DNA of 24,484 nt from a virus. The stretch lies in IMG/VR virus record IMGVR_UViG_3300032797_000152, positions 1 through 24,484 of that record; one strand, 5' to 3'. Under the pieces are notes generated by a model, which ran no database searches, had not been told where the DNA came from, and saw nothing but the letters and a program-made list of their open reading frames with translations. Shown in pieces: positions 1,511 through 20,971 of the stretch. The number at the start of each line of letters is the position of its first letter. The first letter of the stretch is position 1. The translations under genes and the position numbers were made by a program.

Positions 1511-2080
1511 ATGCTAATACCATTCTTAGTTTGCTTATTCATTTTAATTATTATACACGAATTATCTCATTTTCTAGCGGCACGATTAGTTGGTTGCGAT
1601 GTAGAAATAGTAAGTATAGGATTTGGTAAGCCAGTATTATTTAGTAAAAAAATAGGCAAGACAACTTATAGAATTACTCCTTGGCTTCTTGGAGGTTACT
1701 GTAAGTTAAAGGGAGAACTCGAATATACGCAAGAAAAGAATACATTCTCTAATTTAAAATACGGACAAAAAGTAATTTTGGCAAGTGCAGGATGTGCGGC
1801 TAATATTTTAACAGGAATTTTAGGAATTCTTTTAGGAAACTATTTTCATAATTATTATATATATCTTTATGGTTATCTTGGAATACTTCTAGGAATTGGT
1901 AATATGATACCTTTTCCTGCGCTTGATGGAAGTTATTTATGGTTATTTGGACTAGAGAAAATATATGGGAAGAAAAAAGCTTATCCTATTATGCAGAAAA
2001 TAGTTCGATGGGGATTTACAGTTCTTATGATATTAAATATTGTATGTATTCCTTATTTAATTCAAGTATGGAGTAGATAA
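1511..2080 (+). CDS. Membrane-embedded metalloprotease, site-2 protease (M50) family
   Basis: A 189-residue hydrophobic protein carrying the M50 signature set. HELSH (H16, E17, H20) lies in the first membrane helix and binds the catalytic zinc. LLGGYCKLKGE resembles the RseP/S2P PxGGYVKxxGE loop. ASAGCAANIL matches the AGPxxN motif, and IPFPALDGS supplies the conserved aspartate of the NxxPxPxLDGG motif. There is no PDZ domain, so this is a minimal member, much shorter than RseP. The family cleaves transmembrane segments of substrate proteins inside the membrane, often anti-sigma factors or signal-peptide remnants; the substrate here cannot be inferred. The start directly follows the primase stop, and the last base is shared with the next ATG. 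Confidence 0.85.
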   Translation: MLIPFLVCLFILIIIHELSHFLAARLVGCDVEIVSIGFGKPVLFSKKIGKTTYRITPWLLGGYCKLKGELEYTQEKNTFSNLKYGQKVILASAGCAANILTGILGILLGNYFHNYYIYLYGYLGILLGIGNMIPFPALDGSYLWLFGLEKIYGKKKAYPIMQKIVRWGFTVLMILNIVCIPYLIQVWSR

Positions 2081-13201: not shown

Positions 13202-13829
13202 TATAGAGGACAACTTTTTAAAAATAAATCCAATAGAGTTATATAAAACTAATTCTCAGTTTGATAATCTAGAAGAAGGAGGATTTATTCCTGGAACTAT
13301 CATTGAAATTATAGGCAAAGAATCTTCTGGTAAAACTATGTTAATGCTTTCTTTTATACATGAATTACAGAAGAATTACTTTCCTATTGTTTATATAGAT
13401 ACAGAATATTGTTTTAGCGAAAACTTTGCACAAGAATTAGGAATAACTCCAGAAAATTTACCTATAATTACTGATAGTAATTTGGATGAAATTTTACAAA
13501 TTTTAAAACATCTTTATCCTTCATATCAATATAAATTTATCATTATAGATTCTTTTGCGGGACTTACTCATTTAGATAAGTTCTATGAACTAATTGAATT
13601 TATTACAAATAATAAAATTGTACTTATTTATACTAATCAACTTCGCCTAAATTTAAAAACTAGAAAGCTTACTAGCCCTACTATAAAATATCTAAGAAAG
13701 GCAGTATATAGTAGAGTTAAAATACTTCAAAAATTTATAATGAAAGATGGCACGGATATAGTATTTATGAAAAGATTAAAATCGTCATTAGATAGCGAAA
13801 CATTTAATATAAGGATATTCCATGATTGA
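13179..13829 (+). CDS. Second RecA/RadA-fold ATPase, 216 aa
   Basis: A RecA-core-only protein. Walker A is GKESSGKT (46-53) preceded by GGFIPGTIIEI, the strand YIDTEYCF carries the catalytic glutamate (E76), Walker B is FIIID (120-124), and YTNQLRLN (Q154) matches the RecA switch motif. It lacks both the N-terminal helix domain and the C-terminal DNA-gating domain of RecA, and is far shorter than the recombinase at 3726. It could be a Rad51-paralogue- or RadA/Sms-like mediator that loads or remodels the main recombinase, or that works with SbcCD at DNA ends. It overlaps the SbcC gene, supporting a joint function. Confidence 0.8.
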   Translation: MENQQLSNIEDNFLKINPIELYKTNSQFDNLEEGGFIPGTIIEIIGKESSGKTMLMLSFIHELQKNYFPIVYIDTEYCFSENFAQELGITPENLPIITDSNLDEILQILKHLYPSYQYKFIIIDSFAGLTHLDKFYELIEFITNNKIVLIYTNQLRLNLKTRKLTSPTIKYLRKAVYSRVKILQKFIMKDGTDIVFMKRLKSSLDSETFNIRIFHD

Positions 13830-14574
13830 TACTACCCCTAAATGTAGGCTAGGAAAATGTAAATCATGTAAAAAATCTAGGGATATTAGGTCAAAATCTA
13901 AATTATGTATTATTTGTTGGAGGAAATTTGCAATAGGAAAAAATGCTATTTTTTATGGTAAACATCATACTAAATTGGCAAAACAAAAAATGAGTAAATC
14001 TCAAAAAGGTAATAAAAATGGATTCAAAAATGGTAAACCAGTCTGCATTAATTGCAGAAAAGAAATTAATTATAATACCACTAGATGTTCTCTTTGTTTT
14101 CATAAATTATTAAGTAAAAAATTAAAAGGTATTAAACCAAGTCAACAATGTTTAAAAGCAGCAAAAAAAGCAAATTCTCATCCTATGTCAAAAGAACAAA
14201 AAGAAAATATAAGTAAATCATTATTAGGGAAAAATAAAGGAAAAAATAGCGCGTTATTTGGTAAAAAAGCTCCTTTTATTAAAAAAATAAAATATAAACA
14301 TATAAAAATGCGTTCTTCTTGGGAGGTTGCTTATGCTAAATATTTGGACAAGAATAATATTAAATGGCTTTATGAACCTAAAACTTTTGATTTAGGAAAT
14401 ACCACTTATACTCCCGATTTTTATCTTCCAGAAACTGATACTTATATAGAAATAAAAGGTAGATGGTTTAAAGATTCTAAAGAAAAATTTCTTTTATTTA
14501 AGAAAAAATATTATAGCGTTAATATAACTTTATTAACTAAAAAAGAATTAGCACAATTAAAAATAATAAAATGA
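13822..14574 (+). CDS. Free-standing homing endonuclease: zinc finger, NUMOD3, PD-(D/E)XK
   Basis: A 250-residue lysine-rich protein. N-terminal cysteine pairs (C13/C16, C29/C32) suggest a zinc finger, with another set at 75-92. Two NUMOD3-like modules follow, near HTKLAKQKMSKSQKG (49-63) and MSKEQKENISKSLLG (122-136), which read DNA in homing enzymes. The catalytic part is PD-(D/E)XK: SSWEVAYAKYL (E168), YTPDFYLP (D199) and TYIEIKGRW (E210, K212). It should cut an intergenic or gene target in phages lacking it and spread by repair copying. It overlaps the RecA-like gene by 8 nt and the next gene by 4, so it was inserted neatly without breaking neighbours. Very high lysine content with AAA codons differs from the replication genes. 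Confidence 0.85.
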   Translation: MIDTTPKCRLGKCKSCKKSRDIRSKSKLCIICWRKFAIGKNAIFYGKHHTKLAKQKMSKSQKGNKNGFKNGKPVCINCRKEINYNTTRCSLCFHKLLSKKLKGIKPSQQCLKAAKKANSHPMSKEQKENISKSLLGKNKGKNSALFGKKAPFIKKIKYKHIKMRSSWEVAYAKYLDKNNIKWLYEPKTFDLGNTTYTPDFYLPETDTYIEIKGRWFKDSKEKFLLFKKKYYSVNITLLTKKELAQLKIIK

Positions 14575-15547: not shown

Positions 15548-16168
15548 ATGATTAAAAAGACCTTTGAAACTAAATTAGAAGTAGATATATATTTGGCAGA
15601 ACAAAAAATACGAATGGAAAGGGGCTATCTTACTCGTTCTGAAAGAGAAGAAGTAAAATCGTTGTTTGCCAATCCTGCCGCACTTATCCAACCAAAAGTA
15701 GTTTTAAAAGGAAGAAAAATAATTACTAATATTGATGAGCTAAAACAACCTTGCGAACTTGCCACAGATACAGAAGTTCCTGCAATTATTAAAGCTTTAG
15801 AAGAAACTTTAAAAGAAGTGGGAGGATATGGATTATCTGCTCCTCAAATAGGAATTAAAAAGCAAGTAGCAATTATTCGTATAGGAGAAAAAAAGAACGA
15901 GCCTGGAGTATTTCAAACTAAAGAAGACTTAATTAATCCTGTAATCGTAGATAAAGGAGAACAAGTTCAATCTTATGAACGCTGTCTAAGTCTGCCAGGA
16001 ATAGGTTTAATAGTTAATCGTTACGCATATGTGATGGTTGAAATGAATAATAAGAAAACTTATTTTATGGGTTTTGAAGGAACTGTTGTCCAGCACGAAA
16101 TAGACCACCTAAAAGGTCTTCTAATTACAGACCGTAAGTATAAAGATATTAATCGGAGAAAAAAATAA
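15548..16168 (+). CDS. def: Peptide deformylase with N-terminal extension
   Basis: A 206-residue protein with all three deformylase motifs: GYGLSAPQIG (93-102), ERCLS (144-148, consensus EGCLS) and QHEIDH (182-187). C146, H183 and H187 are the metal ligands and E184 the catalytic acid. The enzyme removes the formyl group from nascent proteins at the ribosome. Phage versions are known, especially in marine cyanophages, and are thought to keep host or phage membrane proteins maturing during infection. About 55 extra residues precede the usual start of the domain and are charged and helical. The second residue of motif II is Arg rather than Gly. The preceding 70-aa basic gene may be a partner. 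Confidence 0.92.
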   Translation: MIKKTFETKLEVDIYLAEQKIRMERGYLTRSEREEVKSLFANPAALIQPKVVLKGRKIITNIDELKQPCELATDTEVPAIIKALEETLKEVGGYGLSAPQIGIKKQVAIIRIGEKKNEPGVFQTKEDLINPVIVDKGEQVQSYERCLSLPGIGLIVNRYAYVMVEMNNKKTYFMGFEGTVVQHEIDHLKGLLITDRKYKDINRRKK

Positions 16169-16641: not shown

Positions 16642-17298
16642 ATGAGAATGACTCTAAAACTAAAAAATATTAAAAGTTTTACTATGGCTCGTTCTTGGAA
16701 ATTAGGTTTAATTAAACCTAGTAAACCAAAAGGAATAGAATTAATTCCTTTAAAAAAGGGAACTAAATTTAATCATTTAACAATTATAAAATTACATCAT
16801 ATTGTATGGAAATATCAAAGAAGTAATTATTATTATTTATGTCAATGCGACTGTGGAAAGAGAAAAATTATCGTTAAAGAATCTATTCGTAATGGTGAAA
16901 CCAAGTCTTGCGGATGTTATCGTAGAAAATTGTGCGGAAAATCTCATAGAAAAGAAAAATTTATGTCTTCTGCTAGAGCAATATATCGTCTATTAAAAAT
17001 ACGAGCCAAAAATAAACTACAACCCTTTAAATTATCTTTTATTGACTTCGTTCATATAGCTCGCAAAAATTGTTTCTATTGTGGAAAACGACCTAGTCAA
17101 GTTATGCAATCACATAAAAACCATTATTATGGAACTTTTTATTATAATGGTATTGATAGAATAAATTCTCAGAAAGGTTATATCAAAACTAATGTAATTA
17201 CTTGTTGTAAATACTGTAACTATGCAAAAAATGATTTAACTACTACACGATTTTTTAATCATATTAAAAAAATCTATGAACACATTAAAAATAAGTAA
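16642..17298 (+). CDS. HNH homing endonuclease with zinc-binding N-terminal domain
   Basis: A 218-residue basic protein. The first half has CQCDCGKRKIIV and ETKSCGC (C67-C71, C90, C92), the zinc-binding DNA-recognition module seen in phage AP2/HNH endonucleases. The second half is an HNH nuclease: CFYCGKRP (C144, C147), YNGIDRINSQKGY (N169, D172), then TNVITCCKYCNYAKNDL (N184, C189, C192, K196). It is expected to cut homing sites in related phages. The ATG at 16642 follows AGGAGAG by about 14 bases, a long spacing; a downstream ATG at 16648 is also possible. Its 3' end overlaps the start of the transporter by 23 nt, suggesting that insertion reshaped this junction. Confidence 0.85.
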   Translation: MRMTLKLKNIKSFTMARSWKLGLIKPSKPKGIELIPLKKGTKFNHLTIIKLHHIVWKYQRSNYYYLCQCDCGKRKIIVKESIRNGETKSCGCYRRKLCGKSHRKEKFMSSARAIYRLLKIRAKNKLQPFKLSFIDFVHIARKNCFYCGKRPSQVMQSHKNHYYGTFYYNGIDRINSQKGYIKTNVITCCKYCNYAKNDLTTTRFFNHIKKIYEHIKNK

Positions 17299-18457
17299 TA
17301 AATTATTTTGGATATATCTTTTATCGGCAACAATATATGCTTGCCAAGGACTAGAAACTTTACCGTCATTATCTTTGTTCTTTTTCCTTAAAGAAAAACT
17401 TGGTTTTTCTGCTGAAAAAATAATGTACATTGGCAGTATTACAGGATTAGCATGGCTCGTAAAGCCTTTATGGGGATATTTAGCCGATAACTATTTAACT
17501 AAAAAATCTTGGATTTTAATCTCTTTATTGGGTAGTATTTTAATATCCTTGTATTTTGGATTGTCTCCTATTCTTCCTTTGGGTATGCTAATTTTAATGT
17601 CTTCTTTAGGTGGATGGACTTCAGCAATGAGGGATACTTCTGTAGATGGTATTATGTGTGTTTCTGGTAAAGAACATAATGAATGTGGAAGAATTCAAGC
17701 TTTACAGTGGGCTTCAATTACAGTTGCTAGTATTATTGTAGGTTTAGGTGGAGGATATATAGCCGACCATTTTTCATATAAATTCGGATACTTATGTCTT
17801 ATTCCTATATATCTAGTTATTAGTATGATTGTATTAAAATATCGAACATGTGTTCAAAATAATGAACATAAGTCCAAAATTTTAGATACTATTAAATCAT
17901 ATAAAGTTCTATTTACGGATAAAAGATTCTTATGGGCGTGTTTATTTCTATTTCTTTATAAATATAGTCCTAGTTTTGGTACTCCTTTAGCCTTTATTGA
18001 ACGAGATGGATTTAAGTGGTCAGGAATGTGGATGGGAACTTTAGGAGCAATTGTATCAGGATTTGAAATCTTAGGAGCCTTAATTTATTTTAAAATAGGT
18101 AAAAAAATTAATATAAAGAAATGGTTAATTGCTTCTGTATTCTTGGGAGCTACTACTACCTTATGTTATCTTAAATTTACTCCTATTACTGCAGTAGTTT
18201 ATGGAATATTATTTGCAATCTTAGGAATGTTTGTTCATTTAATAATTATGGCGTGGATGGCACAGAATACAATCACAGGAAAAGAAGCAACTTCCTTTGC
18301 TCTTTTATGTTCCATCAGTAATTTATCTGCAACTTCTTCCTCCCTTTCGGGAGCTTTTTTATATCCTAAAATAGGATTACAATGGCTTATTATTCTTTCT
18401 GCCGTTACTAGTTTTATATGCTTACCTTTAATTCGTAAACTTGAATTAACTAAATAA
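17276..18457 (+). CDS. Major facilitator superfamily transporter, BT1/AmpG-like
   Basis: A 393-residue, very hydrophobic protein with about twelve membrane helices, the full MFS length. The segment SITGLAWLVKPLWGYLADNY (around 53-72) matches the PWxxKPLxGxxSD motif A region of BT1 (folate/biopterin) and AmpG-type transporters, and AMRDTSVDGIM (about 117-127) matches their conserved D-x-x-VD loop. It would move a small molecule across the host inner membrane; the substrate cannot be told from sequence. It is followed by a LicD transferase and a CDP-ribitol-type synthase, so a sugar or precursor is conceivable. The ATG at 17276 lacks an obvious ribosome site (only an A-rich tract precedes it), and the HNH gene runs 23 nt into it. 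Confidence 0.82.
   Translation: MNTLKISNKLFWIYLLSATIYACQGLETLPSLSLFFFLKEKLGFSAEKIMYIGSITGLAWLVKPLWGYLADNYLTKKSWILISLLGSILISLYFGLSPILPLGMLILMSSLGGWTSAMRDTSVDGIMCVSGKEHNECGRIQALQWASITVASIIVGLGGGYIADHFSYKFGYLCLIPIYLVISMIVLKYRTCVQNNEHKSKILDTIKSYKVLFTDKRFLWACLFLFLYKYSPSFGTPLAFIERDGFKWSGMWMGTLGAIVSGFEILGALIYFKIGKKINIKKWLIASVFLGATTTLCYLKFTPITAVVYGILFAILGMFVHLIIMAWMAQNTITGKEATSFALLCSISNLSATSSSLSGAFLYPKIGLQWLIILSAVTSFICLPLIRKLELTK
18340..18360 (+). terminator. Terminator-like hairpin inside the transporter gene
   Basis: CTCCC at 18340-18344 pairs with GGGAG at 18349-18353 around a TTTC loop. One C then precedes six T at 18355-18360. This is the form of a small intrinsic terminator, but the stem is only five pairs and lies within coding sequence (SLSGAFL), so it may be chance. 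If active it would reduce transcription into the LicD and CDP-ribitol genes. Confidence 0.3.
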
Positions 18458-18466
18458 GGAGAAATA

Positions 18467-19111
18467 ATGAACGATTTTTTGGAGAAATTTAAAGCGCAGA
18501 CCAAAGAAGAAATAAGTAAATTAAATTATAAAAAATATTTGTATCAATTTAATGAATTAGAAAAAAAGCAGTTTGCTAATGAGATGAAAGATATAGAAAT
18601 CTATTTTAAAAGAAATTTAAGTTTAGAGATATATCCTGTCTATGGAACTCTCTTAGGTATAATTAGGGATAACGATTTTATTGGTTGGGATACTGATATT
18701 GATTTAGCATATTTAAGCAAATATCATACTAATGAAGAAGTAATAAAAGAATTTAACGAGATTTGTAGTTTTTTAGAAGAGAAAAAATTATTATTATATA
18801 GAATAAAAACTATGAGTCATCTTCATGTATGGTCTCCTAATAAAGGATTAAGAGTGGACTTGTGGATTTCCTGGATGGATACAAATAATAATTACCATAT
18901 AGTCTGGACAGTATCAGGAGATATTGATTCTTCTATGATTTTACCTTTTAAGACTGTAGAATTTAAAGGGCAAACATTCCGCCAAATGAATGACCCTGAA
19001 AGATTTTTAAATGAGCATTATCCCAATTGGAAAATACCTTTAGATGGAACGGCAAATGATTGGGCAAAAAGAAAACCACGATTTGAACTTGAACCGTGGC
19101 ATGGAAAATAA
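18467..19111 (+). CDS. LicD-family nucleotidyl/phosphotransferase
   Basis: A 214-residue LicD/fukutin-type protein. YGTLLGIIR (59-67) and FIGWDTDIDL (71-80; D75, D77, D79) are the family's GTLLGxxR and WDxDxDI motifs. RVDLWISW supplies the later strand acid, and FRQMNDPERFLNEHYPNW is the usual C-terminal signature. Members transfer phosphocholine from CDP-choline or ribitol phosphate from CDP-ribitol to glycans. The next gene encodes an enzyme with the domain layout of CDP-ribitol synthases, so ribitol phosphate is the more likely donor group here; that is inference. No signal peptide is seen, so it acts in the cytoplasm. The start has GGAGAA upstream. Confidence 0.9.
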   Translation: MNDFLEKFKAQTKEEISKLNYKKYLYQFNELEKKQFANEMKDIEIYFKRNLSLEIYPVYGTLLGIIRDNDFIGWDTDIDLAYLSKYHTNEEVIKEFNEICSFLEEKKLLLYRIKTMSHLHVWSPNKGLRVDLWISWMDTNNNYHIVWTVSGDIDSSMILPFKTVEFKGQTFRQMNDPERFLNEHYPNWKIPLDGTANDWAKRKPRFELEPWHGK

Positions 19112-19112
19112 A

Positions 19113-20354
19113 ATGAAAAATATAGGTATAATTTTAGCAGGGGGTAACGGAAGTAGATTCGGGAGCCAAATTCCAAAACAATATATGTCTCTTAATGGTA
19201 AACTTGTCATTCAATATGTTATAGATGCTTTTGAAGAATCTAAATATTTTGACCAGATTATAATTGTAGGAGAATATTTTAATACTAAACATATGATAGT
19301 TAAACCTGGAACCACACGTAATGAATCAATACAACATGGATTAGATGCTTGCCCTAATGATACAGACAATGTATTATTCCATGATGCTGCTAGACCATTT
19401 ATTAAAGCTAAAGATTTGCCTCAATATTTTGGAGCATTAATGTATAATGATGCCGCAGTTACTAGTGTTAAAATCACAGATGCGATGTTTCCAAAATTTG
19501 AAGATAGAACGCGTCATACATTGATACAAACTCCTGAAGCTTTTAGATTTAAAAAATTAATGGAAGTTTTTAATGTAGAAAATACTGATTGTATTGCTAT
19601 TTATCAACATCTTATTTCTAGTAATAGTAATATAGGTTTAATTGAACTTTCTCATCAAAATATGAAAATAACTTATCCCCAGGACCTTTATATAGCAGAA
19701 CAATTAATGAAATATAAAGAAGTAATTAAAAGAACTTCTGACGTTAAAGGAAAGGATATTCTTATTTTTGGAGGTACAGGAGGAATCGGAATTGCTCTTA
19801 CAAAACAATTAAATGAATTAGGAGCTAATGTTATATCTTTAGGAAGTAATGATGCAGACTTATCTAAATCAGTTTCTACTTTTACTTCTGACTATACTAA
19901 TTTTGATTGTATTATCTATTCTGCAGGAAGTTATGCTACCGATTCTGAAGGATTGATTAATAGTTATGATAAAATAATGAATGTAAATTTTAAGAGTATT
20001 GTTAATATTGTAGAAAATGCAGAAACAATGCTTAAACCTGGAGGAAGTATAATTCTATTAGGTTCTACTGCCGCTTCATTTGGTAGACCTGGAATTGCTC
20101 TTTATTCTGCTTCTAAAGCGGCTTTAAATTGCTTTGTAGAAGCCATAGCTCCTACATTAGCTAAAAAAGGATTTAGAATTAATGTAATCTGTCCTGCCAA
20201 AGTAGCTACTCCTTTACAGACTCATATTAATCCTAATGCTAACCAGAAAGAGATGATTCAGCCAGAAGATTTAGCTAAAATTATAATAGGATATATAGAT
20301 ATAAATGTAACAGGACAGATTGTATATGTCAAAGTAGGTATGACAAATATTTAA
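19113..20354 (+). CDS. Fused IspD-like cytidylyltransferase and short-chain dehydrogenase (Acs1/Bcs1-like CDP-ribitol synthase)
   Basis: A 413-residue two-domain enzyme. Residues 1-205 are an IspD/TarI-type cytidylyltransferase: LAGGNGSRFGSQIPKQYM (8-25), FHDAARPF (89-96) and LIQTPEAFRF (137-146). Residues 214-413 are a short-chain dehydrogenase: FGGTGGIG (219-226) binds the dinucleotide, YSAG (269-272) is the NAG-like motif, S318 lies in LLGST and Y331-x3-K335 in YSASK. Haemophilus Acs1 and Bcs1 share this order; they reduce ribulose 5-phosphate with NADPH and join ribitol 5-phosphate to CTP to give CDP-ribitol. Length is somewhat below those enzymes. In-frame ATGs at 19044 and 19101 lie in the LicD gene; 19113, directly after its stop, fits the domain start. 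Confidence 0.85.
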   Translation: MKNIGIILAGGNGSRFGSQIPKQYMSLNGKLVIQYVIDAFEESKYFDQIIIVGEYFNTKHMIVKPGTTRNESIQHGLDACPNDTDNVLFHDAARPFIKAKDLPQYFGALMYNDAAVTSVKITDAMFPKFEDRTRHTLIQTPEAFRFKKLMEVFNVENTDCIAIYQHLISSNSNIGLIELSHQNMKITYPQDLYIAEQLMKYKEVIKRTSDVKGKDILIFGGTGGIGIALTKQLNELGANVISLGSNDADLSKSVSTFTSDYTNFDCIIYSAGSYATDSEGLINSYDKIMNVNFKSIVNIVENAETMLKPGGSIILLGSTAASFGRPGIALYSASKAALNCFVEAIAPTLAKKGFRINVICPAKVATPLQTHINPNANQKEMIQPEDLAKIIIGYIDINVTGQIVYVKVGMTNI

Positions 20355-20365
20355 AGGGAGGAATA

Positions 20366-20971
20366 ATGAAAAAAAGTAGAAATAATCAGGATTTTGAATT
20401 TCCAAATCCAAATCCGTATGAAGTATTATTAAATGAAGCACGTTATATTCTTCTTTATGATGTAATTAATAGTGAAAGCGCAAAAGAAGTAAATACTAAA
20501 TTACTTGGTATGGCACTTGAACATTGTAAAGCTCCTATTTATCTTGAAATTAATTCTGTTGGAGGGTCTGTAGCAGATGGAATTGCAATTATGAATACTA
20601 TTCAGCATATTCCTTGTCCTGTAATTACTATTATTAATGGAGAAGCATGTTCTATGGCTGGAATTATTTCAGTCATGGGGAGTATACGAATGATGACTCC
20701 TCATTCTTATTGGTTGGGTCATCCCATGTATGATGAAGTTGGAGGAAATCCTCAAACTATTCAAGATAGAGGAATTTATTTGAGTAAACTAGAAGAAGAT
20801 TTACAGTCAGTATTTAAAACAAAAACAAAATTAACTAGCGAAGAATTCCAAAAAATGATGAGAGGCGAATTATGGCTTTCAACTAATGAATGTTTAGCTA
20901 AAGGTATTGTTGATGAAATAGTAGAAACTGGAAAACGAGTTATAAAAATTATAAAAAAGAAAGGTAAATAA
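20366..20971 (+). CDS. clpP: ClpP-like serine protease
   Basis: A 201-residue ClpP/crotonase-fold protease. EINSVGGSVADGIAIMNTI (61-79) forms the oxyanion and strand region, GEACSMAGI (92-100) carries the nucleophile S96, and YWLGHPM carries H119. The third position, where E. coli ClpP has D172 (ERDRFLS), aligns with GELWLS, so E168 replaces Asp. The N-terminal residues that dock unfoldase partners are not recognisable. Phage ClpP proteins serve either as prohead proteases or as peptidases acting with host ATPases; this one is away from any recognised capsid genes in the window. AGGGAGG precedes the start. Confidence 0.88.
   Translation: MKKSRNNQDFEFPNPNPYEVLLNEARYILLYDVINSESAKEVNTKLLGMALEHCKAPIYLEINSVGGSVADGIAIMNTIQHIPCPVITIINGEACSMAGIISVMGSIRMMTPHSYWLGHPMYDEVGGNPQTIQDRGIYLSKLEEDLQSVFKTKTKLTSEEFQKMMRGELWLSTNECLAKGIVDEIVETGKRVIKIIKKKGK

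What the first reader, a model, noticed from the sequence alone, without database searches (positions are those of the whole stretch)
18467..20354. Phage-encoded CDP-ribitol synthase fusion next to a LicD transferase: a possible ribitol-phosphate glycan-modification cassette
The sequence shows a LicD protein with intact GTLLG and WDxDID motifs, followed directly by a single-chain IspD-like plus SDR enzyme. Known: Haemophilus Acs1/Bcs1 have that domain order and make CDP-ribitol from ribulose 5-phosphate; fukutin and FKRP, in the LicD superfamily, use CDP-ribitol to add ribitol phosphate to a glycan. Inference: the phage makes its own CDP-ribitol and transfers ribitol phosphate to a host envelope glycan (superinfection exclusion, receptor masking) or to its own virion. 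I do not know of a described phage system of this kind.
Basis: partly seen in the sequence, partly recalled or inferred. Interest (0 to 1): 0.85.

Follow-up and report, generated by a model that had tools for sequence, protein, structure and literature searches.

The report
Phage CDP-alditol synthase plus LicD transferase
A bacterial virus carries two neighbouring genes that probably make an activated sugar alcohol (likely CDP-ribitol) and then attach sugar-alcohol phosphate to a surface glycan; such pairs turn out to be common in viral DNA, and the activating enzyme is swapped between related viruses while the transferase stays.

Summary
LicD (18467-19111) is followed one base later by a 413-aa IspD-SDR fusion (19113-20354), inside a real phage contig. 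The LicD has FKRP's four essential aspartates and an FKRP-like predicted fold. The fusion keeps its CTP-loop and SDR catalytic residues. Its IspD half lies on the side of TarI and bacterial IspD-SDR fusions, apart from MEP-pathway IspDs (99/98 support). A CDP-alditol synthase plus LicD transferase is well supported; ribitol specifically is plausible but unproven.

The pattern goes wider. Four other IMG/VR contigs pair an IspD-SDR fusion with LicD. Of 36 viral contigs with LicD relatives, 31 carry a cytidylyltransferase (three families) within 3.2 kb of LicD. In two sister phages the orthologous LicD (69-79% identical) has an SDR-DUF2284-TagD-like trio instead. The window's fusion sits exactly between the LicD stop codon and the ClpP Shine-Dalgarno sequence: the activating module has been exchanged.

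Not wholly unprecedented: adjacent licD and ispD genes were reported in Flandersviridae and read as isoprenoid metabolism; phage YerA41 encodes an IspD-SDR fusion; bacterial capsule loci hold such pairs. The target (host envelope, virion or DNA) is unknown. Verdict: new variant of a known kind.

The parts
18467..19111 (+). LicD-family phosphotransferase, 214 aa
   Evidence: Pfam LicD 3.7e-08; 69-79% identical orthologues in two sister phages; model aligns to FKRP, Z 13.9
18644..18658 (+). GTLLG motif (aa 60-64)
   Evidence: sequence; GT.LG invariant in 20 phage LicDs
18686..18703 (+). WDTDID, Asp75/77/79 = FKRP Asp360/362/364
   Evidence: alignments; FKRP residues essential for activity, PMC6965139
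18857..18859 (+). Asp131 codon = FKRP Asp416
   Evidence: alignments; PMC6965139
19113..20354 (+). IspD-SDR fusion, 413 aa: predicted ketose-phosphate reductase plus alditol-phosphate cytidylyltransferase (CDP-alditol, probably CDP-ribitol, synthase)
   Evidence: Pfam; four phage relatives 39-42% identical; AlphaFold model pLDDT 88.8
19113..19718 (+). IspD/TarI-like cytidylyltransferase domain (aa 1-202)
   Evidence: LAGGNGSRFGSQIPKQ loop, HDAARP, NMKIT present
19728..20351 (+). SDR reductase domain (aa 206-413): GGTGGIG, Asn292, Ser318, Tyr331-x3-Lys335
17276..18457 (+). AmpG/BT1-like MFS transporter, context; conserved in the phage lineage with or without LicD
20366..20971 (+). ClpP-like head maturation protease, context; follows LicD directly in sister phages that lack the fusion

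Best explanation
The two genes form a donor-plus-transferase cassette. The SDR half of the fusion reduces a ketose phosphate (most likely ribulose 5-phosphate) to an alditol phosphate. The IspD/TarI-like half couples it to CTP to give a CDP-alditol (most likely CDP-ribitol). LicD then transfers the alditol phosphate from the CDP-alditol to a hydroxyl of a glycan. Shown here: gene structure, domains, conserved catalytic residues, predicted folds, the wider linkage of phage LicD to cytidylyltransferases, and exchange of the donor module. Inferred: the reactions, ribitol as the alditol, and a host-envelope glycan as acceptor, which would block superinfection or mask a receptor.
For: Domains and residues. 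LicD profile matches FKRP, a ribitol-phosphate transferase, at 2.8e-17, with FKRP Asp360/362/364/416 aligned to conserved Asp75/77/79/131. LicD model: FKRP Z 13.9 against 10.9 for the next fold. Top Foldseek hit of the fusion model is human ISPD/CRPPA, 4cvh, a CDP-ribitol synthase (PMC4873967). IspD halves of the phage fusions group with Staphylococcus TarI and bacterial IspD-SDR fusions and apart from MEP-type IspDs, 99/98 support, 97% of bootstrap trees. Bacterial LicD next to such fusions in Parabacteroides and close by in a Clostridia bin, and two genes further on in Proteus. Five viral contigs with fusion plus LicD. 31 of 36 LicD viral contigs have a cytidylyltransferase, all within 3.2 kb, 23 within 1.5 kb against 4.5 expected, 0 of 20,000 random placements as many. 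Nine sister contigs in which no LicD was found: 0 with PF01467.
Against: No biochemistry. The IspD domain is below the cut-off of both the TarI model (82 of 166 bits) and the IspD model (132-134 of 181), so family models do not fix the substrate. LicDs 69-79% identical occur beside an SDR-DUF2284-TagD-like set in sister phages, so the shared donor may not be CDP-ribitol. No glycosyltransferase was recognised in this window. The host is unknown, so the presence of an acceptor cannot be checked.
Confidence: 0.68

Rival explanations
1. Same cassette chemistry but a different alditol: CDP-arabinitol, CDP-glycerol or another CDP-polyol, with LicD tolerant of the head group or specific for that polyol.
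For: Orthologous LicDs (69-79%) pair with SDR plus TagD-like enzymes in G002 and G004, whose best NCBIfam hit is glycerol-3-phosphate cytidylyltransferase 2e-27. The IspD-SDR partner is scattered over the LicD tree, at least 6 changes forced by supported branches. Phage fusions are remote from TarI.
Against: The one characterised IspD-SDR architecture found in papers here (Acs1) makes CDP-ribitol, and human ISPD does too (PMC4873967).
Confidence: 0.4
2. The acceptor is the phage's own virion glycan or its DNA, not the host envelope.
For: The cassette abuts the head maturation protease gene. YerA41, with a diverged IspD-SDR fusion, has thymidine carrying about 1 kDa of oligosaccharide-like modification (PMC9023294). 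In L007 the pair lies near virion-like and lysin-like genes.
Against: No DNA-base hypermodification gene was recognised among the window's annotated genes. In three relatives LicD is fused to a GT2 glycosyltransferase and in two more to GT2 plus TPR repeats, as expected for glycan acceptors in general. Bacterial counterparts lie in capsule or O-antigen loci.
Confidence: 0.25
3. The IspD half serves isoprenoid (MEP) synthesis and LicD is unrelated, as suggested for Flandersviridae.
For: The best NCBIfam score of the IspD half is the IspD model; Benler et al. 2021 read the gene pair this way.
Against: Score below the IspD cut-off; tree puts it away from MEP IspDs with 99/98 support; fused to an SDR; linked to LicD in five contigs.
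Confidence: 0.04
4. The pair is a decaying or chance cellular acquisition without function.
For: Present in only some contigs of the lineage.
Against: Open frames with conserved active sites, one-base spacing, exact insertion between LicD and ClpP, recurrence in distant phages.
Confidence: 0.03

Closest known systems
[quoted passage not shown]
   Same: IspD-like domain followed by a reductase domain in one chain, linked to a CDP-alditol-using pathway
LicD superfamily, with FKRP and fukutin
   Same: GTLLG and WDxDxD motifs, four catalytic Asp, FKRP-like nucleotidyltransferase fold (predicted)
   Different: 214 aa, no stem domain, phage-encoded, donor and acceptor unknown
licD plus ispD insertion of Flandersviridae gut phages (Benler et al. 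2021, PMC8008677)
   Same: Adjacent licD- and ispD-family genes in a phage; envelope modification suggested for licD
   Different: There ispD was read as isoprenoid metabolism and no SDR fusion is mentioned; the window phage has a family-B-like DNA polymerase, whereas Flandersviridae were delineated with polA
Bacterial capsule/O-antigen loci with IspD-SDR fusion and LicD (Parabacteroides, Proteus, a Clostridia bin)
   Same: Fusion near LicD
   Different: Parabacteroides and Proteus loci also hold flippase-, polymerase- or glycosyltransferase-like genes; the phage version is a two-gene unit
Yersinia phages YerA41 and GN1 IspD-SDR fusion
   Same: Phage-encoded IspD-SDR fusion
   Different: About 24% identical, no LicD listed within 8 kb in YerA41, KpsC-like transferases instead, YerA41 DNA heavily modified

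Membership tests
Acs1/Bcs1-type CDP-ribitol synthase | IspD/TarI domain N-terminal and reductase domain C-terminal in one chain | tested here: met
Acs1/Bcs1-type CDP-ribitol synthase | CTP-binding loop and conserved Asp/Arg/Lys of the IspD/TarI domain; SDR cofactor and catalytic residues | tested here: met
   R15, K22, D91, R94, K185, G220, N292, S318, Y331, K335 invariant or nearly so in a 20-member alignment
Acs1/Bcs1-type CDP-ribitol synthase | Branches with known CDP-ribitol enzymes | tested here: inconclusive
   On the TarI/bacterial-fusion side (99/98), but in its own phage-Clostridia group; no Acs1/Bcs1 sequence at hand
Acs1/Bcs1-type CDP-ribitol synthase | Makes CDP-ribitol from ribulose 5-phosphate, NADPH and CTP | not testable with these tools
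   needs an enzyme assay
TarI (NF001183) | Curated model score 166 bits | tested here: not met
   79-82 bits
MEP-pathway IspD (TIGR00453) | Curated model score 181.3 bits; clade with MEP IspDs | tested here: not met
   132-134 bits; separated 99/98
LicD (PF04991) | Pfam score over cut-off, GTLLG, DxDxD and the fourth Asp | tested here: met
   34.2 against 22.6 bits
LicD (PF04991) | Transfers alditol or choline phosphate from a CDP donor | not testable with these tools
   needs an enzyme assay
FKRP/fukutin | N-terminal stem domain in front of the catalytic domain | tested here: not met
   214 aa; residues 20-200 align to FKRP 301-491 only
Flandersviridae licD-ispD phages | Adjacent licD- and ispD-family genes | tested here: met
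   PMC8008677
Flandersviridae licD-ispD phages | Membership by terminase and polA phylogeny | tested here: inconclusive
   the DNA polymerase matches family-B-like polymerases; no terminase was identified in the window

The most novel reading that the evidence does not exclude
Viral LicD transferases generally travel with their own donor-making enzyme, and phages exchange that enzyme (IspD-SDR, SDR-DUF2284-TagD-like, or LicC-LicA-like fusion) while keeping LicD. This would be a phage-borne, modular system for capping glycans with phospho-alditols or phosphocholine-like groups, in which the chemical tag is varied by swapping the donor module.
Probability: 0.5. Interest if true: 0.78.

Novelty: new variant of a known kind. 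Interest (0 to 1): 0.62.

Why it matters
It would extend ribitol-phosphate-type glycan tagging, known from teichoic acids, capsules and human dystroglycan, to viruses. It offers a testable route by which phages could alter receptors or shield virions. It also suggests that a published 'phage isoprenoid' gene is a CDP-alditol gene (that reinterpretation is inference; the Flandersviridae sequence was not examined here).

Tried and rejected
Single-sequence scans of IMG/VR with the fusion or LicD found nothing; alignment-based scans did. Apparent IspD hits in 'phage' records: the human-faecal contigs L003 and L004 and the Listeria and Staphylococcus records look like bacterial DNA, and Microcystis phage MaAM05 shows ispD beside rpsA, rplU, rpmA and ispH; all were set aside as probable contamination. 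The idea that a Thr-to-Ala change after Asp123 marks altered substrate binding was dropped, because Thermotoga IspD also has Ala there. Fold comparison cannot tell IspD from TarI (Z 26.5 and 25.3). Paper searches for phage CDP-ribitol with LicD, and for LicD with auxiliary metabolic genes, returned nothing. Host could not be assigned: relatives cannot be drawn for a virus record and no tRNA is present.

Full report
What is there. The window is an IMG/VR virus record of 24,484 bases with a DNA polymerase, a UvsX-like recombinase, SbcC/D-like proteins and a ClpP-like head maturation protease. LicD occupies 18467-19111 and the IspD-SDR fusion 19113-20354; the LicD stop and the fusion ATG are separated by one base. 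Pfam: LicD 3.7e-08, IspD 6.9e-29, adh_short 6.8e-27, all above curated cut-offs.

LicD. A profile of 20 phage LicDs finds FKRP at 2.8e-17. FKRP Asp360, 362, 364 and 416, all reported as critical for activity (PMC6965139), align to Asp75, 77, 79 and 131 of the window protein; the first three are invariant and the fourth nearly so. The AlphaFold model (mean pLDDT 82.3) matches FKRP at Z 13.9, rmsd 4.1, 168 residues; the next fold is at 10.9. The FKRP stem domain is absent.

Fusion. The model has mean pLDDT 88.8. The N-terminal half matches IspD and TarI about equally (Z 26.5 and 25.3) and the C-terminal half matches SDRs, among the best human L-xylulose reductase. Foldseek's first hit over the whole chain is human ISPD/CRPPA, 4cvh, which makes CDP-ribitol (PMC4873967). 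CTP-loop, Asp91, Arg94, Lys185, the SDR glycine motif and Asn292/Ser318/Tyr331/Lys335 are conserved. In trees of the IspD domain, the five phage fusions group with Clostridia fusions and paralogues, on the side of Staphylococcus TarI and the other bacterial fusions; MEP-type IspDs lie on the other side of a branch with 99/98 support. The label 'MEP-type' was taken from the first tree, so the second tree is a check on stability, not an independent naming. The phage domains score below the cut-offs of both the IspD and TarI models. The sequence therefore supports a CDP-alditol synthase and leaves ribitol likely but open.

Relatives in viruses. IMG/VR contig L007 has the same LicD and fusion pair (fusion about 40% identical) with glycosyltransferase-like genes upstream. 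A LicD scan returned 35 viral loci. With L007 this makes 36 records; 26 have a CTP_transf_like (TagD/RfaE-like) gene, four have IspD-SDR fusions, and two have an NTP-transferase fusion, in one of which (L117) Pfam also finds a weak kinase-like APH domain. Thirty-one of 36 have at least one of these, all within 3.2 kb of LicD; 23 lie within 1.5 kb against 4.5 expected by random placement, and none of 20,000 placements reached 23. The contigs with IspD-SDR (four plus the window) show no CTP_transf_like gene. Nine related contigs in which no LicD was found have no PF01467 gene. Contigs are fragments and partly related, so these figures describe a trend, not independent events.

Module exchange. 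Sister phages G002 and G004 share MFS, LicD (69% and 79%), ClpP and metallophosphoesterase genes with the window. They lack the fusion and instead carry SDR, DUF2284 and a TagD-like gene downstream, which the window lacks. Their LicD reads ...GGCATGGAAAATAA AGGAGG... into ClpP. In the window the fusion sits between the same LicD end and a GGGAGG in front of ClpP. On the LicD tree the window protein is nested with those two at 100/100, and the IspD-SDR partner needs at least six changes on supported branches. A second exchange is seen between L130 (TagD-like partner) and L140 (LicC-LicA-like partner), whose GT2-TPR-LicD proteins are close kin. The TagD-like partners score between glycerol-3-phosphate cytidylyltransferase and the heptose-1-phosphate adenylyltransferase domain, so not all need use CTP. 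Either the modules make the same donor or LicD accepts several head groups; this is the main reason not to claim ribitol as established.

What is known. The Acs1 architecture and its CDP-ribitol activity are established (Follens et al. 1999, as cited in PMC4873967 and PMC5560731). Bacterial loci hold the fusion next to LicD (Parabacteroides) or near it (Clostridia bin L009; Proteus). Benler et al. 2021 reported adjacent licD- and ispD-family genes in Flandersviridae and read ispD as isoprenoid metabolism. YerA41 and GN1 encode an IspD-SDR fusion beside KDO-transferase-like genes; YerA41 DNA carries about 1 kDa on thymidine (PMC9023294), which is why a DNA or virion target is kept as a rival. 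A roseophage TagD-like gene was reported without a known role (PMC6918029). No paper found here describes the LicD-cytidylyltransferase linkage or the exchange of donor modules in phages; the library holds open-access papers only.

How it most likely works. SDR reduction of a ketose phosphate, cytidylylation to a CDP-alditol, and LicD transfer of alditol phosphate to a glycan. The target is inferred to be a host envelope glycan, which would fit superinfection exclusion or receptor masking, but no acceptor evidence exists. LicD-GT2 and GT2-TPR-LicD fusions in relatives support a glycan acceptor in general.

Noticed in passing
window 17276-18457: AmpG/BT1-like MFS transporter conserved at 61-69% in six sister contigs (L115, L116, L117, L118, L130, L142) with or without LicD; its role in a phage is unclear.
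   Followed up: partly
L128-L134: SDR, DUF2284 and TagD-like genes form a recurrent trio beside LicD in seven viral contigs; the DUF2284 protein has no known role in donor synthesis.
   Followed up: partly
L117 6961-8739; L147 13173-14924: NTP-transferase fusion proteins (592 and 583 aa) near LicD, in L117 with a weak kinase-like (APH) domain: a possible LicC-LicA-like, phosphocholine-like donor route in phages.
   Followed up: partly
L130 8381-10549; L131 10597-12900; L134 10557-13304; L162 9908-11776; L144 2571-3827: LicD fused to GT2 glycosyltransferase (with TPR-like repeats in L130), or to a methyltransferase in L144; L131 also has a LAGLIDADG-like stretch.
   Followed up: partly
window 1511-2080 and 15548-16168: M50 metalloprotease and peptide deformylase genes are conserved across the phage lineage, adjacent to each other in several relatives but far apart in the window.
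   Followed up: no
window 13822-14574: ORF with a weak NUMOD3 match and an endonuclease-like C-terminus among the replication genes, possibly a mobile endonuclease.
   Followed up: no
L002 7998-9365: YerA41 IspD-SDR fusion is strongly diverged and did not match the simple HDxxRP and YxSxK patterns; it may act in DNA hypermodification.
   Followed up: partly
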